This document shows, piece after piece, positions 4,094 to 19,124 of a DNA stretch of 64,000 nucleotides. The position numbers and the translations under genes are program-made. Origin of the DNA: Lysobacteraceae bacterium CU05-9 (GTDB lineage: Bacteria > Pseudomonadota > Gammaproteobacteria > Xanthomonadales > Xanthomonadaceae); NCBI GenBank assembly GCA_007556525.1, contig SWJS01000002.1:62001-126000 (forward strand), in the 5' to 3' direction. The notes under the pieces are model-generated. The model ran no database searches. It saw only the letters and a list, made by a program, of their open reading frames with translations, and was not told where the DNA came from. The stretch's first letter is position 1; every line of letters starts with the position of its first letter.

Positions 4094-4218
4094 GGCGTTA
4101 GTCGAAGTTCGAGTGGCACTTTAAGTCGCGAAGGCAACCGATTGTCTCAATAGCGGAGACCGCGCAGCACCAAACTGAACGCGTTGACTTGCGGCAAAAT
4201 AGGTGACCAAATGGACAC
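4094..4218 (+). repeat. 125-nt promoter-region repeat, copy upstream of imuB
   Basis: This block aligns without gaps to 15903-16027 upstream of dnaE2, with about 90 of 125 bases identical by hand count. The best-kept parts are the first 30 bases, which include a small palindrome AGTGGCACT at 4112-4120, and the last 35 bases, which include the -35 box and an inverted repeat. Both copies keep the same distances between these parts. A shared regulatory region for two separated SOS genes is the simplest explanation. Confidence 0.8.
4184..4218 (+). promoter_or_regulatory. imuB promoter with candidate LexA-type operator
   Basis: A -35 hexamer TTGACT (4184-4189) is followed after exactly 17 bases by CCAAAT (4207-4212) at the -10 position. 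The -10 lies inside the inverted repeat GTGACC-AAAT-GGACAC (4203-4218), which differs by one base from the perfect GTGTCC-AAAT-GGACAC in front of dnaE2. A repressor bound here would cover the -10. imuB and dnaE2 are classic LexA targets in other bacteria, so a LexA-type repressor is the likely ligand; this is inference. Transcription would start near 4219, almost at the ATG at 4220. Confidence 0.65.
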
Positions 4219-4219
4219 G

Positions 4220-5671
4220 ATGAGATGGGCGTGCATTTACCTTCCGCACCTGGCGCTGGATGCGGTTTTGCGGAACCTACCCGAGGCGGATCGGGAGAGG
4301 CCGTTGGTGCTGGTCAGCGGGCCGGTGCAGAAGCGCGTGATCGTCGCGGCGAATGCGGCGGCGCAGGCGGCGGGGTTGCATGAGGGGCTTGGGCTAGCGG
4401 CGGCGCAGGCGCTTGTCCATCAATTTGCGACGGTGGAATATGATGCGGCGCAGGTGGAGCATTGGAGACGGTTTTTGGCGGCGTGGGCATACCGTTTCAG
4501 TTCGCAGGTGTGCATGGAGTTTGCGGATGCGATCGTGCTCGAGGTGGGGCACAGCCTGAAGCTATTTGGGCCGTGGCCGCGGTTTGAGCTCCGATTGCGT
4601 GATGAGCTGGCGCAGCTGGGATTTCAGTATCATTTAACCGTGGCGCCGAATCCGACGGCGGCGCGGGCGTTGGCGAATGCGCATGAGGGGCTGGCGATTG
4701 GTGAGGGGCATTTGCGCAGTGCGTTGGGGCAGTTGTCGCTCGAGCATGCGGGGCTGGACATTAAAGTTGTGGATTCCCTGGCGCGAATGGGTGTTCGTTC
4801 GTTGCGTCAACTCGCTGCGTTACCCAGGGCGGCGGTTGGGAAGCGGTTTGGGCGGGAGGTGTTGTCGCATCTCGATCACCTGCATGGGGACGTGATGACG
4901 CCGCTGGAATATTATCGGCCGCCGGATCGTTTTGACCTGCGCATCGAGTTTGAATATGAGGTGGAGTCGTCGCAGGCGTTGCTGTTTCCGCTGCGGCGGT
5001 TGACGGCGGATCTCGCGGCTTACTTGGCGGGGCGCGATGGTGGGGTGCAGAGGTTCCAGGTTTTGTTGGAGCACGAAAACATTCCGTCCACGCCGGTGAC
5101 GATCGGGTTGCTGGCGGCGCAACGCGAAGGGCCGATGTTGTTTGATTTGTCGCGCGGTCGGCTGGAGCAGGTGCAGGTGCCCGCGGCGGTGCGTGGGATG
5201 CGGTTGATCGCGAATGAGTTGCCGTCTTTCGTGCCCGCGTCGCAGGATTTGTTCGAGTCGCGGACGCAGCAGGCGATGCCGTGGACGCAGCTAAGGGAAC
5301 GTTTGCGTTCGCGGTTGGGCGATGAGGCGGTGTATCGGTTGCTGGTTTTTCCGGATCATCGGCCGGAGTGTGCGTGGCGTGCGAGCGTTCGTGAAAGTGA
5401 CGCTGTCTATGATGTCGCGTTGGACCGGATCAGTGAGAGGCCGGGGTGGTTTTTGAAGGAGCCCGTTCTGTTACGTGACACGCGAGTGGATTATCTCGCG
5501 GGGCCGGAGCGCATCGAAAGTGGTTGGTGGGATGAGTCGGCGGCGGAAGTGCGGCGCGATTACTATCAGGTGCGGACGTCGCTGGGGCAGCGTGCGTGGG
5601 TGTGGTGTTATGCGGGTGTGCGGCCTGGCGCGGATGGTTCGGGGTTGATGCTGCAGGGGTGGTTTGGTTAA
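4220..5671 (+). CDS. imuB: ImuB, inactive Y-family polymerase-like mutasome protein
   Basis: The 483-residue product is ImuB, the Y-family-like scaffold that connects DnaE2 to the beta clamp during damage-induced mutagenesis. The N-terminus (MRWACIYLPHLALDAV) has the ImuB signature but lacks the catalytic aspartates of true Y-family polymerases. The fingers/palm region follows (E-F-A-D-A-I-V-L-E-V-G-H-S-L-K-L-F-G), then helix-hairpin-helix and little-finger regions. A short S-Q-D-L-F motif near residue 343 is a candidate clamp-binding peptide. An ATG at 4211 lies inside the operator and would add three residues; I prefer 4220, which implies a leaderless or nearly leaderless mRNA. Normally the gene sits in an imuA-imuB-dnaE2 operon; here dnaE2 is 10.4 kb away and imuA is not in the window. 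Confidence 0.9.
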   Translation: MRWACIYLPHLALDAVLRNLPEADRERPLVLVSGPVQKRVIVAANAAAQAAGLHEGLGLAAAQALVHQFATVEYDAAQVEHWRRFLAAWAYRFSSQVCMEFADAIVLEVGHSLKLFGPWPRFELRLRDELAQLGFQYHLTVAPNPTAARALANAHEGLAIGEGHLRSALGQLSLEHAGLDIKVVDSLARMGVRSLRQLAALPRAAVGKRFGREVLSHLDHLHGDVMTPLEYYRPPDRFDLRIEFEYEVESSQALLFPLRRLTADLAAYLAGRDGGVQRFQVLLEHENIPSTPVTIGLLAAQREGPMLFDLSRGRLEQVQVPAAVRGMRLIANELPSFVPASQDLFESRTQQAMPWTQLRERLRSRLGDEAVYRLLVFPDHRPECAWRASVRESDAVYDVALDRISERPGWFLKEPVLLRDTRVDYLAGPERIESGWWDESAAEVRRDYYQVRTSLGQRAWVWCYAGVRPGADGSGLMLQGWFG

Positions 5672-9806: not shown

Positions 9807-9918
9807 ACGTAACGCTTAAGTTAAGCCGAATTGCAGCGCTACGCCAACAACATGGCAAGCTCCTCCTGCCATGTTGTTGGCGTAGCGATGCAATTTCGGC
9901 TTGAACGCAATGTTAGGT
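9807..9918 (-). other. attC site following the cation-efflux cassette gene
   Basis: On the reverse strand it runs from ACCTAAC to GTTACGT, 112 nt. The long central stem is a perfect 17-bp inverted repeat (ACGCCAACAACATGGCA and its complement), flanked by the usual AAGCCGA / TCGGCTT inner boxes. Its distal end (GTTACGT) deviates slightly from the consensus GTTRRRY. The central stem resembles that of the attC at 11030-11141. Confidence 0.85.
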
Positions 9919-9927
9919 GTTTCTGCA

Positions 9928-10539
9928 TCAGTCACTGGGAGCGCCTGATTTTTGCGATGACGCATCCCTAAGAATCTGGATCCCGCCACGAAGCACAACA
10001 AATGCGATTACGAAACCAACTATAAGATCAGGATAACGACTGCCAAACGCCCACACGAGCGCGCCAGAAAGAATGACGCCCAGGTTGGCAATGACGTCAT
10101 TCTTGGAGAATATAAATGACGCCCGCATGTGCACGCCACCGCTTCGGTGCTTGGCAATGAGAGAAAGGCAAATAACATTAGCGATCAATGCAACGGTGCC
10201 TACTGTGACCATCACCGTGCTTTCGGGGTCGCTGCCGAGAACGAATCGCCTGATTACATCGGTAAGCACAATTAAGGCTAGGGCCACTTGGGCAAAACCA
10301 CTGAATTTTGCAGCTGTTATCTTGAGAATGTCGCTTTTGCCAACAGCATAGAGACTGATGGCGTACACACCTGCATCCGCCAGCATATCTAAAGAGTCGG
10401 CGATGAGGCCCGTGGATTGCGCAAAGAGCCCAAGCGCCATTTCGACGGCGAACATGAAAGCATTGATCCCAAGAATGAGCCTGAGAGTCTTTCGTTCCTG
10501 CTCGTTGTTTGCCTCCATCTCGCACCCGCAATCGGACAT
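9928..10539 (-). CDS. Cation-efflux (CDF-like) membrane protein, integron cassette gene
   Basis: The 203-residue product resembles cation transporters of the CDF superfamily, without the usual C-terminal cytoplasmic domain. It has a cysteine-bearing N-terminus (M-S-D-C-G-C-E-M-E) and about six membrane segments. In the second segment the metal-site motif reads A-D-S-L-D-M-L-A-D, where classical CDF pumps have H-x-x-x-D. In the fifth it reads K-N-D-V-I-A-N rather than H-x-x-x-D. Metal specificity may therefore differ or be lost. The start at 10539 has a GAGG five bases upstream; longer readings would run through the adjacent attC site. It is the outermost cassette gene with a recognisable attC. 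Confidence 0.8.
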   Translation of the reverse strand: MSDCGCEMEANNEQERKTLRLILGINAFMFAVEMALGLFAQSTGLIADSLDMLADAGVYAISLYAVGKSDILKITAAKFSGFAQVALALIVLTDVIRRFVLGSDPESTVMVTVGTVALIANVICLSLIAKHRSGGVHMRASFIFSKNDVIANLGVILSGALVWAFGSRYPDLIVGFVIAFVVLRGGIQILRDASSQKSGAPSD

Positions 10540-10561
10540 GTCAACCTCGAAGTCTGTAAAA

Positions 10562-10670
10562 CACCTAACGCCTGAGTTAAGCTGTGGCGCGCAGTGGCGC
10601 CGCGTTGTGGTAGACGTTACCACAAAAGTCGGCGCCACGAAGCGACATCAGCTTGAACGACTGGTTAGGC
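10562..10670 (-). other. attC site following the ABM-domain cassette gene
   Basis: On the reverse strand it runs from GCCTAAC to GTTAGGT, 109 nt. Inner boxes AAGCTG / CAGCTT, a 9-bp stem GTGGCGCCG / CGGCGCCAC and an apical GTGGTA / TACCAC hairpin are visible. The cassette gene stop lies three bases from its edge. Confidence 0.88.
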
Positions 10671-11421: not shown

Positions 11422-11529
11422 GCCTAACGCCGGAGTTAAGCCGGAGCGCTTTGCGGCTGCTGCGTTGTGACAATTTTCCGAACAACTCCGCGGCCGCGAA
11501 GCGATCTCGGCTTGAACGAATTGTTAGAT
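11422..11529 (-). other. attC site following the HEPN-pair cassette
   Basis: On the reverse strand it runs from ATCTAAC to GTTAGGC, 108 nt. The inner boxes are AAGCCGA / CGGCTT, and the arms CGCTTCGCGGCCGC / GCGGC-CGCAAAGCG form the central stem with mismatches. Its sequence inside the boxes is unlike the other attC sites of this array. Confidence 0.85.
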
Positions 11530-11536
11530 GACACTC

Positions 11537-12265
11537 TCAGAATTTGGAATACACGTTCTGTATCAGGGTCTCAATGTGGGCAGAAGCTTTGTGCTCGCCA
11601 ACGATCAAGGAGTTGGGGTGACCGCAGCCATTTCTGAGCTTCAGGCAAACCTCAAGCTCATCCTTTACATTCTTCCCGATGACAGAGATTGCAGCCATGA
11701 CTTGAAGAAACTCATGCTCCTTCATTCTGGCGAGGTCGTCAGCAGTTTTTGCTATGCGCCATTTTTGATCCCGCTGGGTCGCTTCTGTGTTGAAAACAGA
11801 GAGAAAATTAGAGATCACGAAGTCGTACAAGACGGCAATAGCGCCGACCCAAGAAAGAACTATCGCCGAGCGATACAACTTTGCTTCGAAGGCTTTGATT
11901 GACTCTTCAACAAAGCTACGACAATTAACGTTTGAGATCGTTGGCACTTGATTGCGAAGTGACGAAATCACTAGTGACGTAACCTCTGGGAGCAACGGGC
12001 CTGCGAGCTCTCGCACATGCTTCTTCCCCGTGGCCGTGAGTTCCCAACCATCTTTGCCTCTAACCACGTGCGGTTTGCACTTGCTTAGGTAGTCGGAGAC
12101 GTTCCAGTTTTTGATCTCCCTGAGGCCCAAAGCAGCCGCAGACTCTCGAACTTGTCCGACAGATAGCGGTTGTATTGGCTCCTGAGCGAGACAGAGCATT
12201 AGCTTCTGTTTCGCACCTAGGTCTTTTCTTGCGAGAAGATCCTTAAGGGTCTCGATATCAAACAA
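11537..12265 (-). CDS. Winged-helix / HEPN-like protein, second gene of a two-gene cassette
   Basis: The 242-residue product appears to have two parts. Residues 1-85 look like a winged-helix domain (L-S-V-G-Q-V-R-E-S-A-A-A-L-G-L, then a wing strand G-W-E-L-T-A-T-G-K-K-H-V). Residues 110-242 are helical and contain L-R-N-G-C-G-H-P-N-S near the end, an R-x4-H motif (R211, H216) of the kind that forms the RNase site of HEPN domains. A hydrophobic helix lies near residues 135-155. HEPN proteins are common in toxin-antitoxin and anti-phage systems; RNase activity here is inference. It starts at TTG with GAGG eight bases upstream and overlaps the preceding gene by eight bases. Confidence 0.65.
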   Translation of the reverse strand: MFDIETLKDLLARKDLGAKQKLMLCLAQEPIQPLSVGQVRESAAALGLREIKNWNVSDYLSKCKPHVVRGKDGWELTATGKKHVRELAGPLLPEVTSLVISSLRNQVPTISNVNCRSFVEESIKAFEAKLYRSAIVLSWVGAIAVLYDFVISNFLSVFNTEATQRDQKWRIAKTADDLARMKEHEFLQVMAAISVIGKNVKDELEVCLKLRNGCGHPNSLIVGEHKASAHIETLIQNVYSKF

Positions 12266-12746
12266 GGCGAGACCTCAAATCCTGCTCGGACGCATGTGTA
12301 AGCGCGTAGACCTCATTCGATGGTTCGTTAAGCTTGTTCTCTTTCATTAGCGTCTTAATGGTTTTCGAAAGATTTGAAACATAGCTCTCCTTAAAGAATG
12401 AGGAGGCAGATCTCATTTGCTCGGTGAGTTGTTTGCGAGGAAATTTGTCTAGCCCCTTCACAAAGCGAAGATGAGCTGCGGCAGCGAGGACTAGCTGCGG
12501 CCCAGAGTTGACGCCAAGCTTTGATGCAATTGAAGCAGTGGTCATCTCAAGGACTGTAGAACCTTGGGAAGAGTCTGATTGCGGTTGCGGAGTCTCCGGA
12601 ATACCTGGTGGTGAAACACTTCCAGACTTCACATATAGATCTGATACAGCTGCTAGGAATTTAGGAAGCTCTTCCTTTAGAAAGGCCTCCGATCCTTCGT
12701 ACTCGACTTCGATAGCGCCCATTTTGATGCGGATTTTGCTGTTCAT
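12258..12746 (-). CDS. Partner protein of the HEPN-like cassette gene
   Basis: The 162-residue product is not a named family to me. It begins with a short beta hairpin (K-I-R-I-K-M-G-A-I-E-V-E-Y-E-G-S-E-A-F-L), followed by a helix and a proline/serine-rich linker around residues 42-65. It ends with a helical domain (residues 70-162) that looks like a winged helix (K-F-P-R-K-Q-L-T-E-Q-M-R, then V-S-N-L-S-K-T-I-K-T-L). The ribosome-binding site GGGGGAG is strong. It shares a cassette and an 8-nt overlap with the HEPN-like gene, so the two should act together, plausibly as regulator or antitoxin and effector. Confidence 0.65.
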   Translation of the reverse strand: MNSKIRIKMGAIEVEYEGSEAFLKEELPKFLAAVSDLYVKSGSVSPPGIPETPQPQSDSSQGSTVLEMTTASIASKLGVNSGPQLVLAAAAHLRFVKGLDKFPRKQLTEQMRSASSFFKESYVSNLSKTIKTLMKENKLNEPSNEVYALTHASEQDLRSRLV

Positions 12747-12773
12747 ACGCTCCCCCTGAAGAGTGATAGTGTC

Positions 12774-12833
12774 ATCTAACGCCTGAATTAAGCCGCGCCG
12801 CGAAGCGGCGTCGGCTTGAATGAATTGTTAGGC
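12774..12833 (-). other. Short attC site (60 nt)
   Basis: On the reverse strand it runs from GCCTAAC to GTTAGAT with inner boxes AAGCCGA / GCGGCTT and a GC-rich stem GCCGC-TTC-GCGGC. At 60 nt it has the minimal classical attC length. It follows the gene at 12836-13174. Confidence 0.9.
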
Positions 12834-12835
12834 AT

Positions 12836-13466: not shown

Positions 13467-13694
13467 GCTAAATATTGTTAAAAAGTGGGTTTATAACCAG
13501 AGCATATCGCATAGCCGTGCGAGTTTCAGCCCCCTCTCCCATTCAAACCACTTATTCCCCCAAACCCACGTAATTAGCCGTCGCTCATCCCCGCACACAC
13601 TGCCATTCTCCGACAACAAAATCAGTCACTTACCGATACCAGGACACCTCGGTGAAACCGCACGATGTTTATTCAACGCGCGGGAGGTGGTGGA

Positions 13695-14459
13695 ATGGCA
13701 ACGCTTTTGGAAGTGACGAAACAACGGCTGAGGACTCTGCATTACAGCCGACAGACCGAACAGATCTACACCCAGTGGATCCGGCGGTACATTGGGTTTC
13801 ACCGAGGAACCCATCCCAGGCAGCTTGGCGCTGAAGGTGTTCGCGAGTTCTTAAGTGACTTGGCAGTGCGCGGACAAGTGTCGGCAAGCACGCAGAATCA
13901 GGCGTTGGCGGCCATTTTGTTTCTGTACAAGCATGTGCTGGAAATCAAGCTACCGTGGATTGATGAGGTGGTGCGGGCGAAGCGCCCGGTGCGCGTGCCG
14001 ACAGTGCTTTCGCGGGCCGAAGTCCAGGATTTGCTGGCGGCGATGGAGGGTCGTAGTGCCGTGATTGCGAAGCTTCTCTATGGGACCGGCATGCGGCTGA
14101 TGGAGTGCCTGAGGTTGAGGGTGCAGGATGTGGATTTTGGGAGGAATGAAATTACCGTGCGCGGCGGCACAGGTGGCAAGGACCGGCGGACGATGCTGCC
14201 GGCGAGCATGGTGGTTGCGCTGAAGGAGGAAATTGCGCGGGCAACGCAGTTGCATGACCTTGATGTGCGCGAGGGATTTGGTGAAACGCGGTTGCCGTTT
14301 GCATTGGCCCGAAAATATCCCAAAGCCGGTCGCGAACTCGGCTGGCAATTTGTATTTCCGTCATTGACGCGAAGTACCGATCCGGAGGGTGGCATGCTGC
14401 GGAGAAGTTTGAACTCGCCCGACAAGCGCCGACTCAACAACTGTGAATTATTTGTATAA
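13695..14459 (+). pseudogene. intI: Integron integrase IntI, C-terminally truncated
   Basis: The 254-codon frame is an integron tyrosine recombinase. It has the N-terminal SAM-like domain (residues 1-95) and the box I arginine in G-T-G-M-R-L-M-E (R134). The K162 loop (G-G-T-G-G-K-D-R) and the IntI-specific insertion around residues 185-222 (L-H-D-L-D-V-R-E-G-F-G and A-R-K-Y-P-K-A-G-R-E-L-G-W-Q-F-V-F-P-S) are also present. After D-P-E-G-G-M-L-R-R (about 237) the sequence leaves the family and stops 17 residues later. The H-x-x-R motif, second histidine and catalytic tyrosine are missing, so it should be inactive. The start is set by GGGAGG seven bases before the ATG. A toxin-antitoxin locus begins 26 nt on. 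Confidence 0.88.
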
Positions 14460-14485: not shown

Positions 14486-14830
14486 ATGGACATCTCCTTT
14501 GCGCACCGCGACTTGGCGAAGTGTTGTAACGATTTTCGGTTGTTGAAGAGGCGATTCGGTGACCGGCAGGCGAAGAAGATCATGCAGCGGCTTGAGGTCT
14601 TGAGAGCAGCATCGTGTTTGGCGGATATCGGCATTCGTGGAATGCCTCCGTATCGCTGTCACGAGTTATTCGGTGACCGCGCGGGAGAACTGTCGATTGA
14701 TGTGGTGCATCCGTATCGGCTGATTTTTGGACCAGACCATGATCCAGTTCCACGCACTGGAAATGGTGAGTTGGATTGGAAGCGAATCACCGCGATCAAG
14801 ATTTTTGAGGTTGTTGACACACATGACTAA
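14486..14830 (+). CDS. HigB/RelE-type toxin
   Basis: The 114-residue product resembles HigB-type killer proteins. A helix L-A-K-C-C-N-D-F-R-L-L-K-R-R-F-G-D-R-Q-A and a second helix are followed by sheet strands P-Y-R-C-H-E-L-F-G and G-E-L-S-I-D-V-V-H-P-Y-R-L-I-F. The final strand is I-T-A-I-K-I-F-E-V-V-D-T-H. The family cleaves ribosome-associated mRNA. The downstream gene overlaps by eight bases, the usual toxin-first higBA order. It sits directly behind the truncated integrase, so its arrival may have removed the end of intI. Confidence 0.85.
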   Translation: MDISFAHRDLAKCCNDFRLLKRRFGDRQAKKIMQRLEVLRAASCLADIGIRGMPPYRCHELFGDRAGELSIDVVHPYRLIFGPDHDPVPRTGNGELDWKRITAIKIFEVVDTHD

Positions 14831-15725
14831 ACTGCAAAAATTCAAACCGAATTACGCGACCGTGCCCGGTGAAATCATCGACGAGCATCGGGAAGTCCAT
14901 GGCATGACGCAAGCTCAGCTCGCGACGAGGCTTGGGTTTTCGTTGAAGCACGTCAATCGTTTGTTGGCGGGACTGGAGCCAGTGACTCCGGAGACTGCGA
15001 TGAAGTTGGAATCGATTTTTGGCGTGGCGGCAGTCGTCTGGATCAACCTGGAGGCAGCGTACAGGGAGTTCCATGCGCGCTCAAACGAGAAGCAGGATCT
15101 TTTGAACGAGCTTCCGATGCTTGATGAGATCCCCTATCGTGCAATTGCGAAGCTGGGATGGATCCGCTCGACGGGCAAGGGACCGGACACGATCAAGGAA
15201 TTGCGCTCCCATTACGGCGTCGGATCATTGAGTTATGTTCCCGATGTCTGGGAAAAGGTTCATTCCCAATACACAGGCCATCCTGACTTCGCAGGAAATG
15301 TGTGGGCGATCATGGCGTGGATCGCACAAGGTGATCGTCATGACCGTCCGTCCGAGATCGGTATTTTCGATGCGCAAGCGCTACAGGCAATGCTTCCGGA
15401 CTTTGAATCGTTCGGTGTGAGCGATTCTTCAACGCTGGTCGAGAACTTCGCTGAGTTCGGCATCGTCCTGGCGTTCATACCAACTCCGAAGGGATTGCCC
15501 GTCACTTATGCGACACGATGGCTCTCAAAAGACACCGCGCTCATTCAGCTCAACCCACAAGCCAAAAACATCAACGTCGCCCTATTCCGCGCCGTCGCAC
15601 ACCTGTTACTTCACGGGAAGCGACAACAGTTCATTGGCTTTGTTCGCCCGCCACTTGATGACACGTTTGCGCAGGAAGCAGCTGAGTTTGCTTCCAGATT
15701 GCTACAACCGCATTCTAATCTTTGA
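14823..15725 (+). CDS. HigA-type antitoxin with degenerate ImmA/IrrE-like C-terminal domain
   Basis: The 300-residue product starts with a Cro/C1-type helix-turn-helix (residues 15-75: I-I-D-E-H-R-E-V-H-G-M-T-Q-A-Q-L-A-T-R-L-G-F-S). A long C-terminal region follows that resembles the ImmA/IrrE metallopeptidase-like part of long HigA proteins. The usual H-E-x-x-H is not present; the corresponding place reads R-A-V-A-H-L-L-L-H-G, so peptidase activity is unlikely. I use the ATG that overlaps the toxin stop (ATGACTAA). It should neutralise the toxin and repress the pair. Confidence 0.82.
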   Translation: MTKLQKFKPNYATVPGEIIDEHREVHGMTQAQLATRLGFSLKHVNRLLAGLEPVTPETAMKLESIFGVAAVVWINLEAAYREFHARSNEKQDLLNELPMLDEIPYRAIAKLGWIRSTGKGPDTIKELRSHYGVGSLSYVPDVWEKVHSQYTGHPDFAGNVWAIMAWIAQGDRHDRPSEIGIFDAQALQAMLPDFESFGVSDSSTLVENFAEFGIVLAFIPTPKGLPVTYATRWLSKDTALIQLNPQAKNINVALFRAVAHLLLHGKRQQFIGFVRPPLDDTFAQEAAEFASRLLQPHSNL

Positions 15726-16043: not shown

Positions 16044-19000
16044 ATGAAATACGCCGAACTCCACTGTTTATCTGCTTTTAGCTTCCAGCGCGGCGCGTCC
16101 GTGGCGAAGGAGCTTTTTGAGCGTGCGAAACAGGTTGGCTATGAGGCGCTGGCGATCACCGACGAATGTTCGCTGGCGGGCATCGTGCGGGCATGGGAAG
16201 CGGCGCAGGAGCATGGCGTCAAGCTCATCGTCGGCAGCGAGATCCGCATCACCGACGGGCCGAAGGTGGTCTTGCTGGCATCCGATCAAGAAGCATACGC
16301 CGCACTCTCGCAACTGATCACCGTCGCGAGAAGGCGCGCTGAGAAGGGCTCATACATTTCGTTGAAGGAAGATTACGCGCAGCTCCCCTCCTCGCTTTTT
16401 GCGATTTGGATTCCGGACGACGCGCAAGACGATACGCACATCAAGTGGCTGCAAGAAATTTTCCGCCAAAAACTCTGGCTCGCCATCGAACTCCACCGCA
16501 CCGGTGATGATTCCGCGCGTTGCGAACAACTCGAAGCGATGGCGCGACAACACAACATCACGCCGGTTGCATGCGGCGACGTCCACATGCACATCCGCAA
16601 ACGTCGCGCGTTGCAGGACACACTCACCGCAATACGACATCACTGCACCGTTGCGGAAGCCGGCACGAAATTATTTCCGAATGGCGAACGGCACCTACGC
16701 ACCAAGCAAGCACTGAGCAACATCTATCCGAAGCACTTGCTCGAAGAAACGATCAACATCGCAAACCGCTGCACGTTCGATCTCAAATCGATTAAGTATC
16801 AATACCCGAAAGAACTCGTGCCCGACACGCACACACCGACAAGTTGGTTGCGCGAATTGGTGGATGACAACATTCCGTTGCGTTGGCCGGAAGGACCCAG
16901 CGAAGCGACCGTGACGCAAATCAACCACGAACTTCAGTTGATTGAGGAGATGGGGTATGAGTCGTATTTTTTGACGGTGCATGACATCGTGAAGTTTGCG
17001 CGCATGCAGGGCATCCTGTGCCAGGGACGTGGATCGGCTGCGAATTCCGTCGTGTGCTATGTGCTCGGTGTGACTGCGATTGATCCGGTGCGGATGGGCA
17101 TGTTGTTTGAGCGTTTCATTTCGAAGGAGCGCAATGAGCCGCCGGACATTGACATTGATTTTGAGCATGAGCGGCGTGAGGAAGTTTTGCAGTATGTGTT
17201 CAACCGCTATGGACGTGAGCGTGCGGCGCTGACGGCGGTGGTCGCGCATTACCGTGGGCGCAGTGCGATCCGTGACGTTGCCAAAACACTCGGCTTAGCC
17301 CCCGACCAAATCAACGAACTCGCCTCCACCATGAACCGTTGGAGTGGGCATGCACCAATCCCTGAATATTTACGCGAAAAAGGCTTCGATCCCGATTCAC
17401 CCCTGATGCGCAAGGTGATCGCGTTGACGGTGGAGTTGATTGATTTTCCACGGCATCTTTCGCAGCATCCCGGTGGTTTTGTGATCTCGCAGGCGCCGTT
17501 GAGCACGTTGGTCCCGACCGAAAATGCCGCGATGGACGATCGCACGATCATTCAATGGGATAAGGATGATCTCGACACGATGGGTTTGTTGAAGGTGGAT
17601 TGTTTGGCGCTTGGCATGTTGACGGCCATTCGCAAAACCTTCGAGTCCTTGCGTCGTGATGGTGTTGCGCAGTTGTCGTTGGCGACCGTGCCGTCGGAAT
17701 GTCCTTCGACATACGACATGATTTGTCGCGCGGATACGGTGGGTGTTTTTCAAATTGAATCACGTGCGCAGATGGCGATGTTGCCACGCTTGAAGCCGCG
17801 GTGTTATTACGACTTGGTGGTTGAGGTTGCGATCGTGCGTCCGGGTCCGATTCAAGGGCAGATGGTGCATCCGTATTTGCGGCGACGTGCAGGACTTGAA
17901 GCGGTCGATTACCCGCCAAAATTAGAACACGTCTTCAAGCGCACGTTAGGTGTGCCGTTGTTTCAGGAACAGGTGATGCAACTCGCGATTGCCGGCGCGG
18001 ATTACACACCCGGTGAAGCGGATGCATTGCGGCGTTCGATGGCGGCGTGGAAACGGCGTGGTGGATTGGAGCCGCATCGTGAGAGGTTGACGGCCGGATT
18101 TTTGCGGAATGGATTTACGGCGGAGTATGCCGAGCAGATTTTTACGCAAATCAAAGGCTTCGGTGAATACGGATTTCCGGAATCGCATGCGGCGTCGTTT
18201 GCGTTGCTGACGTATGTGAGTTGTTGGCTCAAAAATCATCACCCGGCTTACTTTGCCTGTGAGTTGATTAACTCTTGGCCGATGGGGTTTTATACGCCGG
18301 ATCAGGTGTTGCAGGATGTGCGACGTGCGCGGATTGAAGTGTTGCCGGTCGATGTGCGTTACAGCGATTGGGATTGCACGATCGAAGCTTCGCGTGGGCG
18401 TCCGGCGTTGCGGTTGGGTTTGCGGATGGTGTCCGGGTTCCGTGAGGATGTTGCGGTGGCGTTGGTTTCTGCGCGTTCTTCGCGTGCGTTCGAATCCGTT
18501 GAAGATTTGTGTGCGCGTGTCGAGTTGGATGAGCGTGCGCGTTCGTTGCTTGCGGATGCGGGTGCGTTGAAGCCGTTGGTCGGTCATCGTCACCGTGCGC
18601 AGTGGGCCGTCGCTGGCATCGAGGTGCAGCGTCCGTTGTTTGGCGAAGTCGATGCGGTGTCGTCTTCGTCGGAGCTGCGGCAGGTGTCGTTGCCGATGCC
18701 TTCCGTGATCGAAGATTTGGTGCGCGATTATGCGTCGGTGGGTACGACGTTGGGTCCGCATCCATTGGCGTTGTTGCGCCCTACTCTGCGGCGTCGACGT
18801 TTCCACAATGCGGCGTCGTTATCGTCGGTTGCGCATGGAGCGTCGGTGCGTGTCGGCGGTCTGGTGACGTTGAAGCAGCGGCCGGAGACTGCAAGTGGCG
18901 TGACGTTCCTGACGCTGGAAGATGAGACGGGGAATATGAGTGTGGTTTTGTGGACAAAAGTTGCGCAGGAGTATCGTCGCGTGCTGGCCGAGTCGCGATT

Positions 19001-19124
19001 GCTGATCGTACATGGGCGCCTGGAGCGTGTCGATGGGGTGACGCATTTGATCGCGGCGAAGTTGGAGAATGGCACTGCGTTGTTGGGTTCTCTGCAGACG
19101 CCGCGTGGGCGGGAGTATCGGTGA
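16044..19124 (+). CDS. dnaE2: Error-prone DNA polymerase DnaE2
   Basis: The 1026-residue protein is a C-family polymerase of the DnaE2 (ImuC) type. An N-terminal PHP domain (residues 3-200, starting [12 protein letters not shown]) is followed by the palm with catalytic aspartates in P-D-I-D-I-D-F (near residue 367). Fingers, a helix-hairpin-helix region and a C-terminal OB fold ([17 protein letters not shown], near residue 950) complete the chain. Length fits the subfamily and is shorter than DnaE1. It performs translesion synthesis together with ImuB and ImuA. It has its own copy of the imuB promoter rather than being in an operon with imuB. No clear Shine-Dalgarno is seen. Confidence 0.95.

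What the first reader, a model, noticed from the sequence alone, without database searches (positions are those of the whole stretch)
11537..12746. Two-gene cassette encoding a winged-helix/HEPN-like protein and a partner
One cassette carries two overlapping genes. The second product has an N-terminal winged helix and a C-terminal helical domain with L-R-N-G-C-G-H-P (R-x4-H), the signature of HEPN ribonucleases. The first has a beta hairpin, a linker and a helical DNA-binding-like domain. HEPN proteins are frequent effectors of toxin-antitoxin and anti-phage systems, and integron cassettes are a known reservoir of such systems. I do not recognise this pair as a described system.
Basis: partly seen in the sequence, partly recalled or inferred. 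Interest (0 to 1): 0.72.

Follow-up and report, generated by a model that had tools for sequence, protein, structure and literature searches.

The report
Winged-helix and HEPN RNase gene pair
A small mobile DNA cassette carries two overlapping genes, a winged-helix protein and an RNA-cutting (HEPN-type) enzyme, that recur together in very different bacteria and most likely form an undescribed anti-phage or toxin-antitoxin module.

Summary
On the minus strand, one integron cassette (11428-12779, flanked by attC sites) carries ORF1 (12746-12258, 162 aa) and ORF2 (12265-11537, 242 aa, TTG start, 8-nt overlap). ORF2 is predicted at high confidence (pLDDT 93.7) as a winged helix plus a HEPN domain. 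R211, N212, H216 and P217 are invariant in 72 homologues, with R-x4-H at the helix end where HEPN RNases have it. ORF1 is a beta-hairpin/helix domain, a linker and a winged helix. About 80 related loci, in proteobacteria and MAGs of other phyla, mostly put a winged-helix-type gene next to ORF2; held-out HMM tests found it directly upstream and nowhere else. The HEPN domain is homologous to the validated single-gene anti-phage protein PD-T7-3 and to 'Dandelion' (PDB 9wx2/9wxf), but here it lacks their C-terminal part and is fused and paired with winged helices. The closest mechanistic parallel is the winged-helix/HEPN pair of type IX retrons, without the reverse transcriptase. Most likely it is a toxin-like RNase held in check by its partner and released on infection. 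No described two-gene system matches in the libraries and papers searched. Toxicity, RNase activity and phage protection are untested; defence-island enrichment was weak.

The parts
11428..12779 (-). integron gene cassette (1352 bp) carrying the pair; crossover points at G|TT of the two attC sites
   Evidence: sequence and attC repeats
12747..12779 (-). 33-nt leader between the recombination point and the ORF1 ATG; strong SD (AGGGGGAG), too short for a promoter of its own
   Evidence: sequence
12258..12746 (-). ORF1, partner protein, 162 aa
   Evidence: ORF; AF2 pLDDT 86.6; conserved upstream of ORF2
12627..12743 (-). ORF1 N-terminal beta-hairpin plus helices (residues 2-40)
   Evidence: AF2; K4, E13, E17, G18 nearly invariant in 47 homologues
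12264..12539 (-). ORF1 winged-helix domain (residues 70-161)
   Evidence: AF2 and Foldseek winged-helix hits
11537..12265 (-). ORF2, winged helix-HEPN protein, 242 aa
   Evidence: ORF; AF2 pLDDT 93.7
12258..12276 (-). coupling region: GAGG (12273-12276), TTG start of ORF2 (12263-12265), 8-nt overlap with the end of ORF1
   Evidence: sequence; TTG is the only start codon near the overlap in 38 of 48 close-family loci
11993..12265 (-). ORF2 N-terminal winged helix (residues 1-91)
   Evidence: AF2; RuvB and SarZ winged helices among the Foldseek hits
11546..11983 (-). ORF2 HEPN domain (residues 95-240)
   Evidence: AF2 and Foldseek HEPN hits; Dandelion-HEPN E=2.4e-6; PD-T7-3; phrog_27609 E=3.6e-9
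11615..11635 (-). RNGCGHP, putative catalytic R211-N212...H216-P217
   Evidence: invariant in 72 homologues
11422..11528 (-). attC site of this cassette
   Evidence: sequence; repeat family D1
12774..12834 (-). attC site of the preceding cassette; its last bases (TTAGAT) belong to this cassette
   Evidence: sequence

Best explanation
A two-gene, toxin-like RNA-cleaving module that most likely defends against phage by abortive infection. Shown by sequence and predicted structure: ORF2 carries a HEPN domain with invariant R-N-x3-H-P, fused behind a winged helix; ORF1 is a second winged-helix protein with a beta-hairpin domain, encoded just ahead of ORF2 in an overlapping arrangement. Inferred: ORF2 works as a HEPN dimer with the R/H pairs forming one RNase site. 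ORF1, translated first and probably in excess because ORF2 has a conserved weak TTG start, binds ORF2 and keeps it inactive. An infection cue, plausibly a phage nucleic acid or DNA-binding protein that competes for the winged helices as in type IX retrons, frees or rearranges the RNase. It then cuts tRNA or other RNA and stops growth before the phage matures.
For: HEPN fold and motif. Same HEPN family as PD-T7-3, a validated anti-phage protein: 63 of 70 homologues match its PADLOC model, and whole-genome scans of seven carrier genomes with that model return one place in each, inside ORF2 where locus coordinates allow a check; and as Dandelion. Partner found directly upstream and nowhere else in held-out tests, with pairwise identities of the two proteins correlated across loci (r = 0.65 over 990 pairs). 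Patchy distribution and a 53%-identical homologue in a Thermodesulfovibrionia MAG point to horizontal transfer. Type IX retron-Kva2 shows a WH/HEPN assembly that cleaves tRNA when a phage HTH protein binds (PMC13405049). Weak AbiEi-antitoxin similarity of ORF1.
Against: No activity was tested. Neighbours of the homologues match only about twice as many PADLOC families as random genes (87 families for 148 proteins versus 36 for 133), and some of the same broad families occur in both sets. The ORF1 families of the close and distant clades are not demonstrably homologous (hhalign E = 0.006), so a conserved inhibitory interface is not shown. At least one ORF1 homologue stands alone (L125). The cassette leader is too short for an autoregulated promoter.
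Confidence: 0.58

Rival explanations
1. A plain type II toxin-antitoxin cassette whose main effect is stabilisation of the integron or island; ORF1 is the antitoxin and ORF2 the RNase toxin, with no phage sensing.
For: Antitoxin-first order, overlap, small proteins and HEPN toxin; weak AbiEi-antitoxin similarity; integron arrays are known to hold toxin-type RNase cassettes (PMC3710099).
Against: The HEPN relatives with tested function are anti-phage proteins. No room for an autoregulated promoter in the mobile unit. An orphan ORF1 homologue is kept in L125. ORF2 is larger than typical type II toxins and has its own winged helix.
Confidence: 0.22
2. The winged-helix partner is a required sensor or activator rather than an inhibitor: ORF2 is inactive alone and needs ORF1, bound to a phage-derived DNA or protein, to assemble the HEPN dimer.
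For: Both proteins carry winged helices; in retron-Kva2 the WH protein bridges sensor DNA and complex; partner families vary (ORF1, WH2, PDC-M34A-like) while the HEPN motif does not.
Against: The weak conserved TTG start of ORF2 and the ORF1-first order fit dosage control of a toxin better.
Confidence: 0.15
3. Transcription regulators: two winged-helix proteins in which the HEPN-like domain only dimerises or binds nucleotides.
For: Two winged-helix domains; some HEPN domains in the literature are inactive (PMC3710099).
Against: R, N, H and P of the motif are invariant in 72 sequences down to about 20% identity, as expected for catalysis.
Confidence: 0.05

Closest known systems
PD-T7-3 (PADLOC PDLC04108; Vassallo et al. 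2022, PMC9519451) and Dandelion (PDB 9wx2, 9wxf)
   Same: Homologous HEPN domain with YRSAxVxxW and R-x4-HP motifs; PD-T7-3 is reported not to appear in defence islands (PMC10799925), like the weak island signal here
   Different: They are single proteins of about 430-460 aa with HEPN at the N-terminus and a long C-terminal part; here HEPN is C-terminal, preceded by a winged helix, and a second winged-helix gene accompanies it
Type IX retron (retron-Kva2, PMC13405049)
   Same: Operon-encoded winged-helix protein plus HEPN RNase; a model for how a WH partner can restrain and release a HEPN dimer
   Different: No reverse transcriptase in the cassette or among the neighbouring cassette ORFs; retron HEPN has separated H64/R122 instead of R-x4-H; homology of the WH proteins is not shown
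PDC-M34 (PADLOC candidate system)
   Same: In Mycobacterium L085 a PDC-M34A protein overlaps a HEPN gene related to ORF2
   Different: Different partner sequence; the PDC-M34B model did not match that genome
HEPN/MNT (HepT-MntA) toxin-antitoxin
   Same: HEPN toxin beside a small partner; HepT structures are among the best fold matches
   Different: Partner is a winged helix, not a nucleotidyltransferase
AbiE (AbiEi/AbiEii)
   Same: Winged-helix antitoxin in a two-gene operon; weak profile similarity of ORF1 to AbiEi
   Different: The AbiE toxin is a nucleotidyltransferase-like protein, not HEPN; scores are far below the family cut-off
Integron-cassette HEPN (PDB 3jrt; PMC3710099)
   Same: HEPN protein in an integron cassette, proposed RNase
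   Different: No 3jrt hit in the sequence searches nor in the 50 Foldseek hits listed; no paired winged-helix gene is described for it in the passages read

Membership tests
HEPN superfamily | all-helical HEPN fold | tested here: met
   AF2 pLDDT 93.7; best Foldseek PDB hits are mostly HEPN proteins, though with E > 0.2; profile match to Dandelion-HEPN E=2.4e-6
[quoted passage not shown]
   R211 in helix 198-214, H216 after it; invariant in 72 sequences
HEPN superfamily | RNase activity of a dimer | not testable with these tools
   needs biochemistry or a complex model
PD-T7-3 / Dandelion | homologous HEPN domain | tested here: met
PD-T7-3 / Dandelion | single ~430-460 aa protein with N-terminal HEPN and C-terminal extension | tested here: not met
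   ORF2 is 242 aa, ends with HEPN, begins with a winged helix
Type IX retron | WH protein plus HEPN protein in one operon | tested here: met
Type IX retron | reverse transcriptase and msDNA-coding RNA in the operon | tested here: not met
   the cassette holds only the two ORFs, and Pfam finds no RT in the neighbouring cassette ORFs; an msDNA-coding RNA was not searched for
HEPN/MNT toxin-antitoxin | nucleotidyltransferase partner | tested here: not met
   partner is a beta-hairpin plus winged helix, no NTase hit
Type II toxin-antitoxin | adjacent partner gene, conserved across homologues | tested here: met
Type II toxin-antitoxin | toxin arrests growth and partner neutralises it | not testable with these tools
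   needs expression tests
Type II toxin-antitoxin | operon autoregulated by the antitoxin at its own promoter | tested here: inconclusive
   only a 33-nt leader in the cassette; other loci not examined
AbiE | AbiEi family membership of ORF1 | tested here: not met
   14.6 bits against a cut-off of 150
Integron gene cassette | ORFs flanked by attC sites in a head-to-tail array next to intI | tested here: met
   attC repeats at 9885, 10637, 11108, 11496, 12800; intI at 13665

The most novel reading that the evidence does not exclude
A new kind of RT-free WH/HEPN immune complex: two winged-helix proteins, one fused to a PD-T7-3-type HEPN RNase, form a sensor that monitors a DNA structure or a phage DNA-binding protein and releases RNA cleavage on infection. 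Interchangeable winged-helix partners (ORF1, WH2, PDC-M34A-like) would set what is sensed.
Probability: 0.3. Interest if true: 0.72.

Novelty: new variant of a known kind. Interest (0 to 1): 0.52.

Why it matters
It defines a recurrent, unannotated two-gene module (no Pfam, NCBIfam or PADLOC system entry found for the pair) whose effector belongs to a HEPN family with a proven anti-phage member. It shows how that effector is reused with winged-helix partners instead of a long C-terminal domain. It also gives a minimal, testable relative of the winged-helix/HEPN core of type IX retrons, and adds a promoterless candidate defence cassette to integrons.

Tried and rejected
Direct hits in Pfam, NCBIfam and PDB sequence searches: none significant for either protein. 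Phage records and IMG/VR: no relative of ORF2. BFVD fold search: nothing informative. Defence-island enrichment: tested against 133 genes from evenly spaced stretches of two genomes that carry the system; the apparent twofold excess rests partly on broad families (mad2, mad3, DpdF, PsyrT) found in both sets, so it is not used as support. Homology of ORF1 across the close and distant clades: the iterative search suggested it, but an HMM of the close clade finds none of the distant ones and hhalign is weak, so it is not claimed; the distant partner does resemble WH2 (E=3.7e-10). Homology between the winged helices of ORF1 and ORF2: suggestive only (hhalign probability 18%). PDC-M34B in the L085 genome: no match. 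Other loci as integron cassettes: no attC pair immediately flanking any of them at the stringency used, which also missed the window's own attC, so this is not conclusive. Papers on Dandelion: none held.

Full report
What is there. The finding lies on the minus strand of an integron cassette array next to a truncated intI (13665-14459). Five attC repeats mark the cassettes. The cassette of interest is 12779-11428 (1352 bp). Its start (TTAGAT) and its attC R'' (ATCTAAC) are exact inverted complements, so the two genes really travel as one cassette. ORF1 (12746-12258) and ORF2 (12265-11537) overlap by 8 nt. ORF2 begins at TTG with GAGG 7 nt upstream. The leader before ORF1 is 33 nt with a strong SD and no room for a promoter, so the cassette depends on outside transcription.

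Families. Neither protein matches Pfam or NCBIfam above cut-off, or any PDB sequence significantly on its own. ORF2 matches phrog_27609 over its C-terminal part (E=3.6e-9). A profile of 70 homologues hits PDB 9wx2 'Dandelion-hepn' (2.4e-6) and 9wxf 'Dandelion' (2e-5), aligning R211...H216-P217 with R...H-P and YRSAIVLSW with YRSATVMLW. 63 of 70 homologues match PADLOC PD-T7-3 (best 1.6e-8). Scanning seven whole genomes that carry the pair with the PD-T7-3 model at a permissive limit gives exactly one place in each; in G050 and G170 the coordinates lie inside ORF2. Two plasmid proteins found with ORF2 (L006, L007) are PD-T7-3/Dandelion-type single genes. PD-T7-3 is an experimentally validated anti-phage protein (PMC9519451) listed with HEPN PF18735 (PMC10952713), and is reported not to appear in defence islands (PMC10799925).

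Structure. AF2 with 70 homologues gives pLDDT 93.7 for ORF2: winged helix 1-91 and helices 95-239. The best Foldseek hits in the PDB are HEPN toxins and archaeal HEPN proteins; the E-values are weak (0.2-1.6), but the top of the list is dominated by HEPN, and RuvB winged helices match the N-terminus. R211 ends helix 198-214 and H216 begins the next loop, as described for the superfamily (PMC3710099). ORF1 gives pLDDT 86.6: beta hairpin 2-19, helices 20-40, disordered 44-60, winged helix 70-161, with winged-helix matches only at E > 0.03.

Homologues and pairing. One genome-contig scan gave 80 loci: closest Burkholderia sp. WAC0059 (64%), then a Thermodesulfovibrionia MAG, Methylophaga, Oleiagrimonas, many Alphaproteobacteria and MAGs of several other phyla. 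In 73 of 83 loci an ORF1-like gene ends close to, or overlaps, the start of ORF2. In a held-out test, an HMM from 24 close-family ORF1s found the gene directly upstream in 25 of 33 unseen loci and nowhere else among 1186 ORFs. The misses are two contig ends (L023, L045), loci whose partner is a second winged-helix family, WH2 (L013, L014, L031, L059), one locus with a diverged beta-hairpin/winged-helix ORF (L046) and one truncated ORF2 (L057). For the distant clade 11 of 14 held-out loci are hit; eight of these are printed as 'elsewhere' only because the tblastn match there starts inside ORF2, and each is the ORF immediately upstream. An HMM of the close-clade ORF1 does not find the distant-clade ORF1, so common ancestry of all partners is not claimed. 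WH2 and the distant partner are related (hhalign 3.7e-10). In some loci (L020, L052, L061, L062) WH2 precedes ORF1, giving three-gene arrangements. In L003 and L031 WH2 is divergently transcribed. In Mycobacterium L085 the partner is a PDC-M34A protein. So the constant part is the HEPN effector, and the winged-helix partner varies.

Conserved weak start. In the close family TTG is the only start codon near the overlap in 38 of 48 loci, in the same +1 frame, often inside CTTGCT. The distant clade mostly uses ATG or GTG. This fits low, coupled translation of a dangerous protein, although the overlap constrains both reading frames and could alone preserve the TTG.

Mechanism. Shown: gene order, overlap, folds (predicted), motif invariance, pairing. 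Inferred: RNase activity, inhibition by ORF1, activation by infection. The nearest worked example is retron-Kva2, where a winged-helix protein, msDNA and RT cage a HEPN dimer, and a phage HTH protein mimicking the winged helix releases tRNA cleavage (PMC13405049). Here the cassette holds no RT, and the HEPN has the canonical motif that the retron HEPN lacks. The module therefore works like, but is not, a type IX retron; it shares a HEPN family with, but is not organised as, PD-T7-3/Dandelion.

Against over-reading. Genes next to the homologues match more PADLOC families than genes from evenly spaced stretches of two carrier genomes (87 for 148 versus 36 for 133), but broad families drive part of this. 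Distribution in relatives is patchy: of 60 near genomes only the window's own has the pair, and one other has a HEPN-only match in a 469-aa frame. An orphan ORF1 (L125) and an ORF2 remnant (L005) exist. The integrase here is truncated, so the cassette may be frozen in this genome. The 2025 papers on integron-borne phage defence that I know of (own knowledge) were not found in the library; whether this pair was among their tested cassettes could not be checked.

Noticed in passing
window 13665-14459: The integron integrase gene is truncated at 264 aa: the Pfam integrase match stops at profile position 86 of 172, so the array is probably frozen unless another integrase acts in trans.
   Followed up: partly
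window 14486-15725: HigB-like toxin ORF (PF05015 E=0.0034, below the cut-off) followed by an ORF that by eye looks like a HigA/XRE antitoxin (HTH plus peptidase-like region); it directly abuts the truncated intI and may have replaced its 3' end.
   Followed up: partly
window 4184-5671 and 16044-19124: The integron and other genes lie between what look by eye like imuB and dnaE2 (both + strand), genes of the SOS mutagenesis set that are usually adjacent.
   Followed up: no
L020 2951-3520, L052 3985-4512, L061 3895-4443, L062 3891-4415, L003 845-1378 (-), L031 4344-4967 (-): A second winged-helix family (WH2) sits beside or replaces ORF1, sometimes divergently transcribed and sometimes as a third gene.
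   Followed up: partly
L126, L128 (and L127, L129-L131): The ORF1 winged-helix profile also matches the C-terminus of large proteins; in L126 and L128 it is a very acidic protein beside an adenylosuccinate synthetase-like gene, so the partner's winged helix may derive from a chromosomal core protein.
   Followed up: partly
L085 4252-4905 and 4902-5441: Mycobacterium locus with a PDC-M34A protein overlapping a HEPN gene related to ORF2; by eye the PDC-M34A protein has the winged-helix and beta/helix parts in reversed order.
   Followed up: partly
L125 1501-1998: Full-length ORF1 homologue without an ORF2 next to it.
   Followed up: no
L005 1501-1617: Remnant of ORF2 (last 39 residues, 64% identical), a decayed copy.
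   Followed up: no
window 9928-10638: Another cassette of the same array encodes a cation-efflux family protein (PF01545 E=1.8e-15).
   Followed up: no
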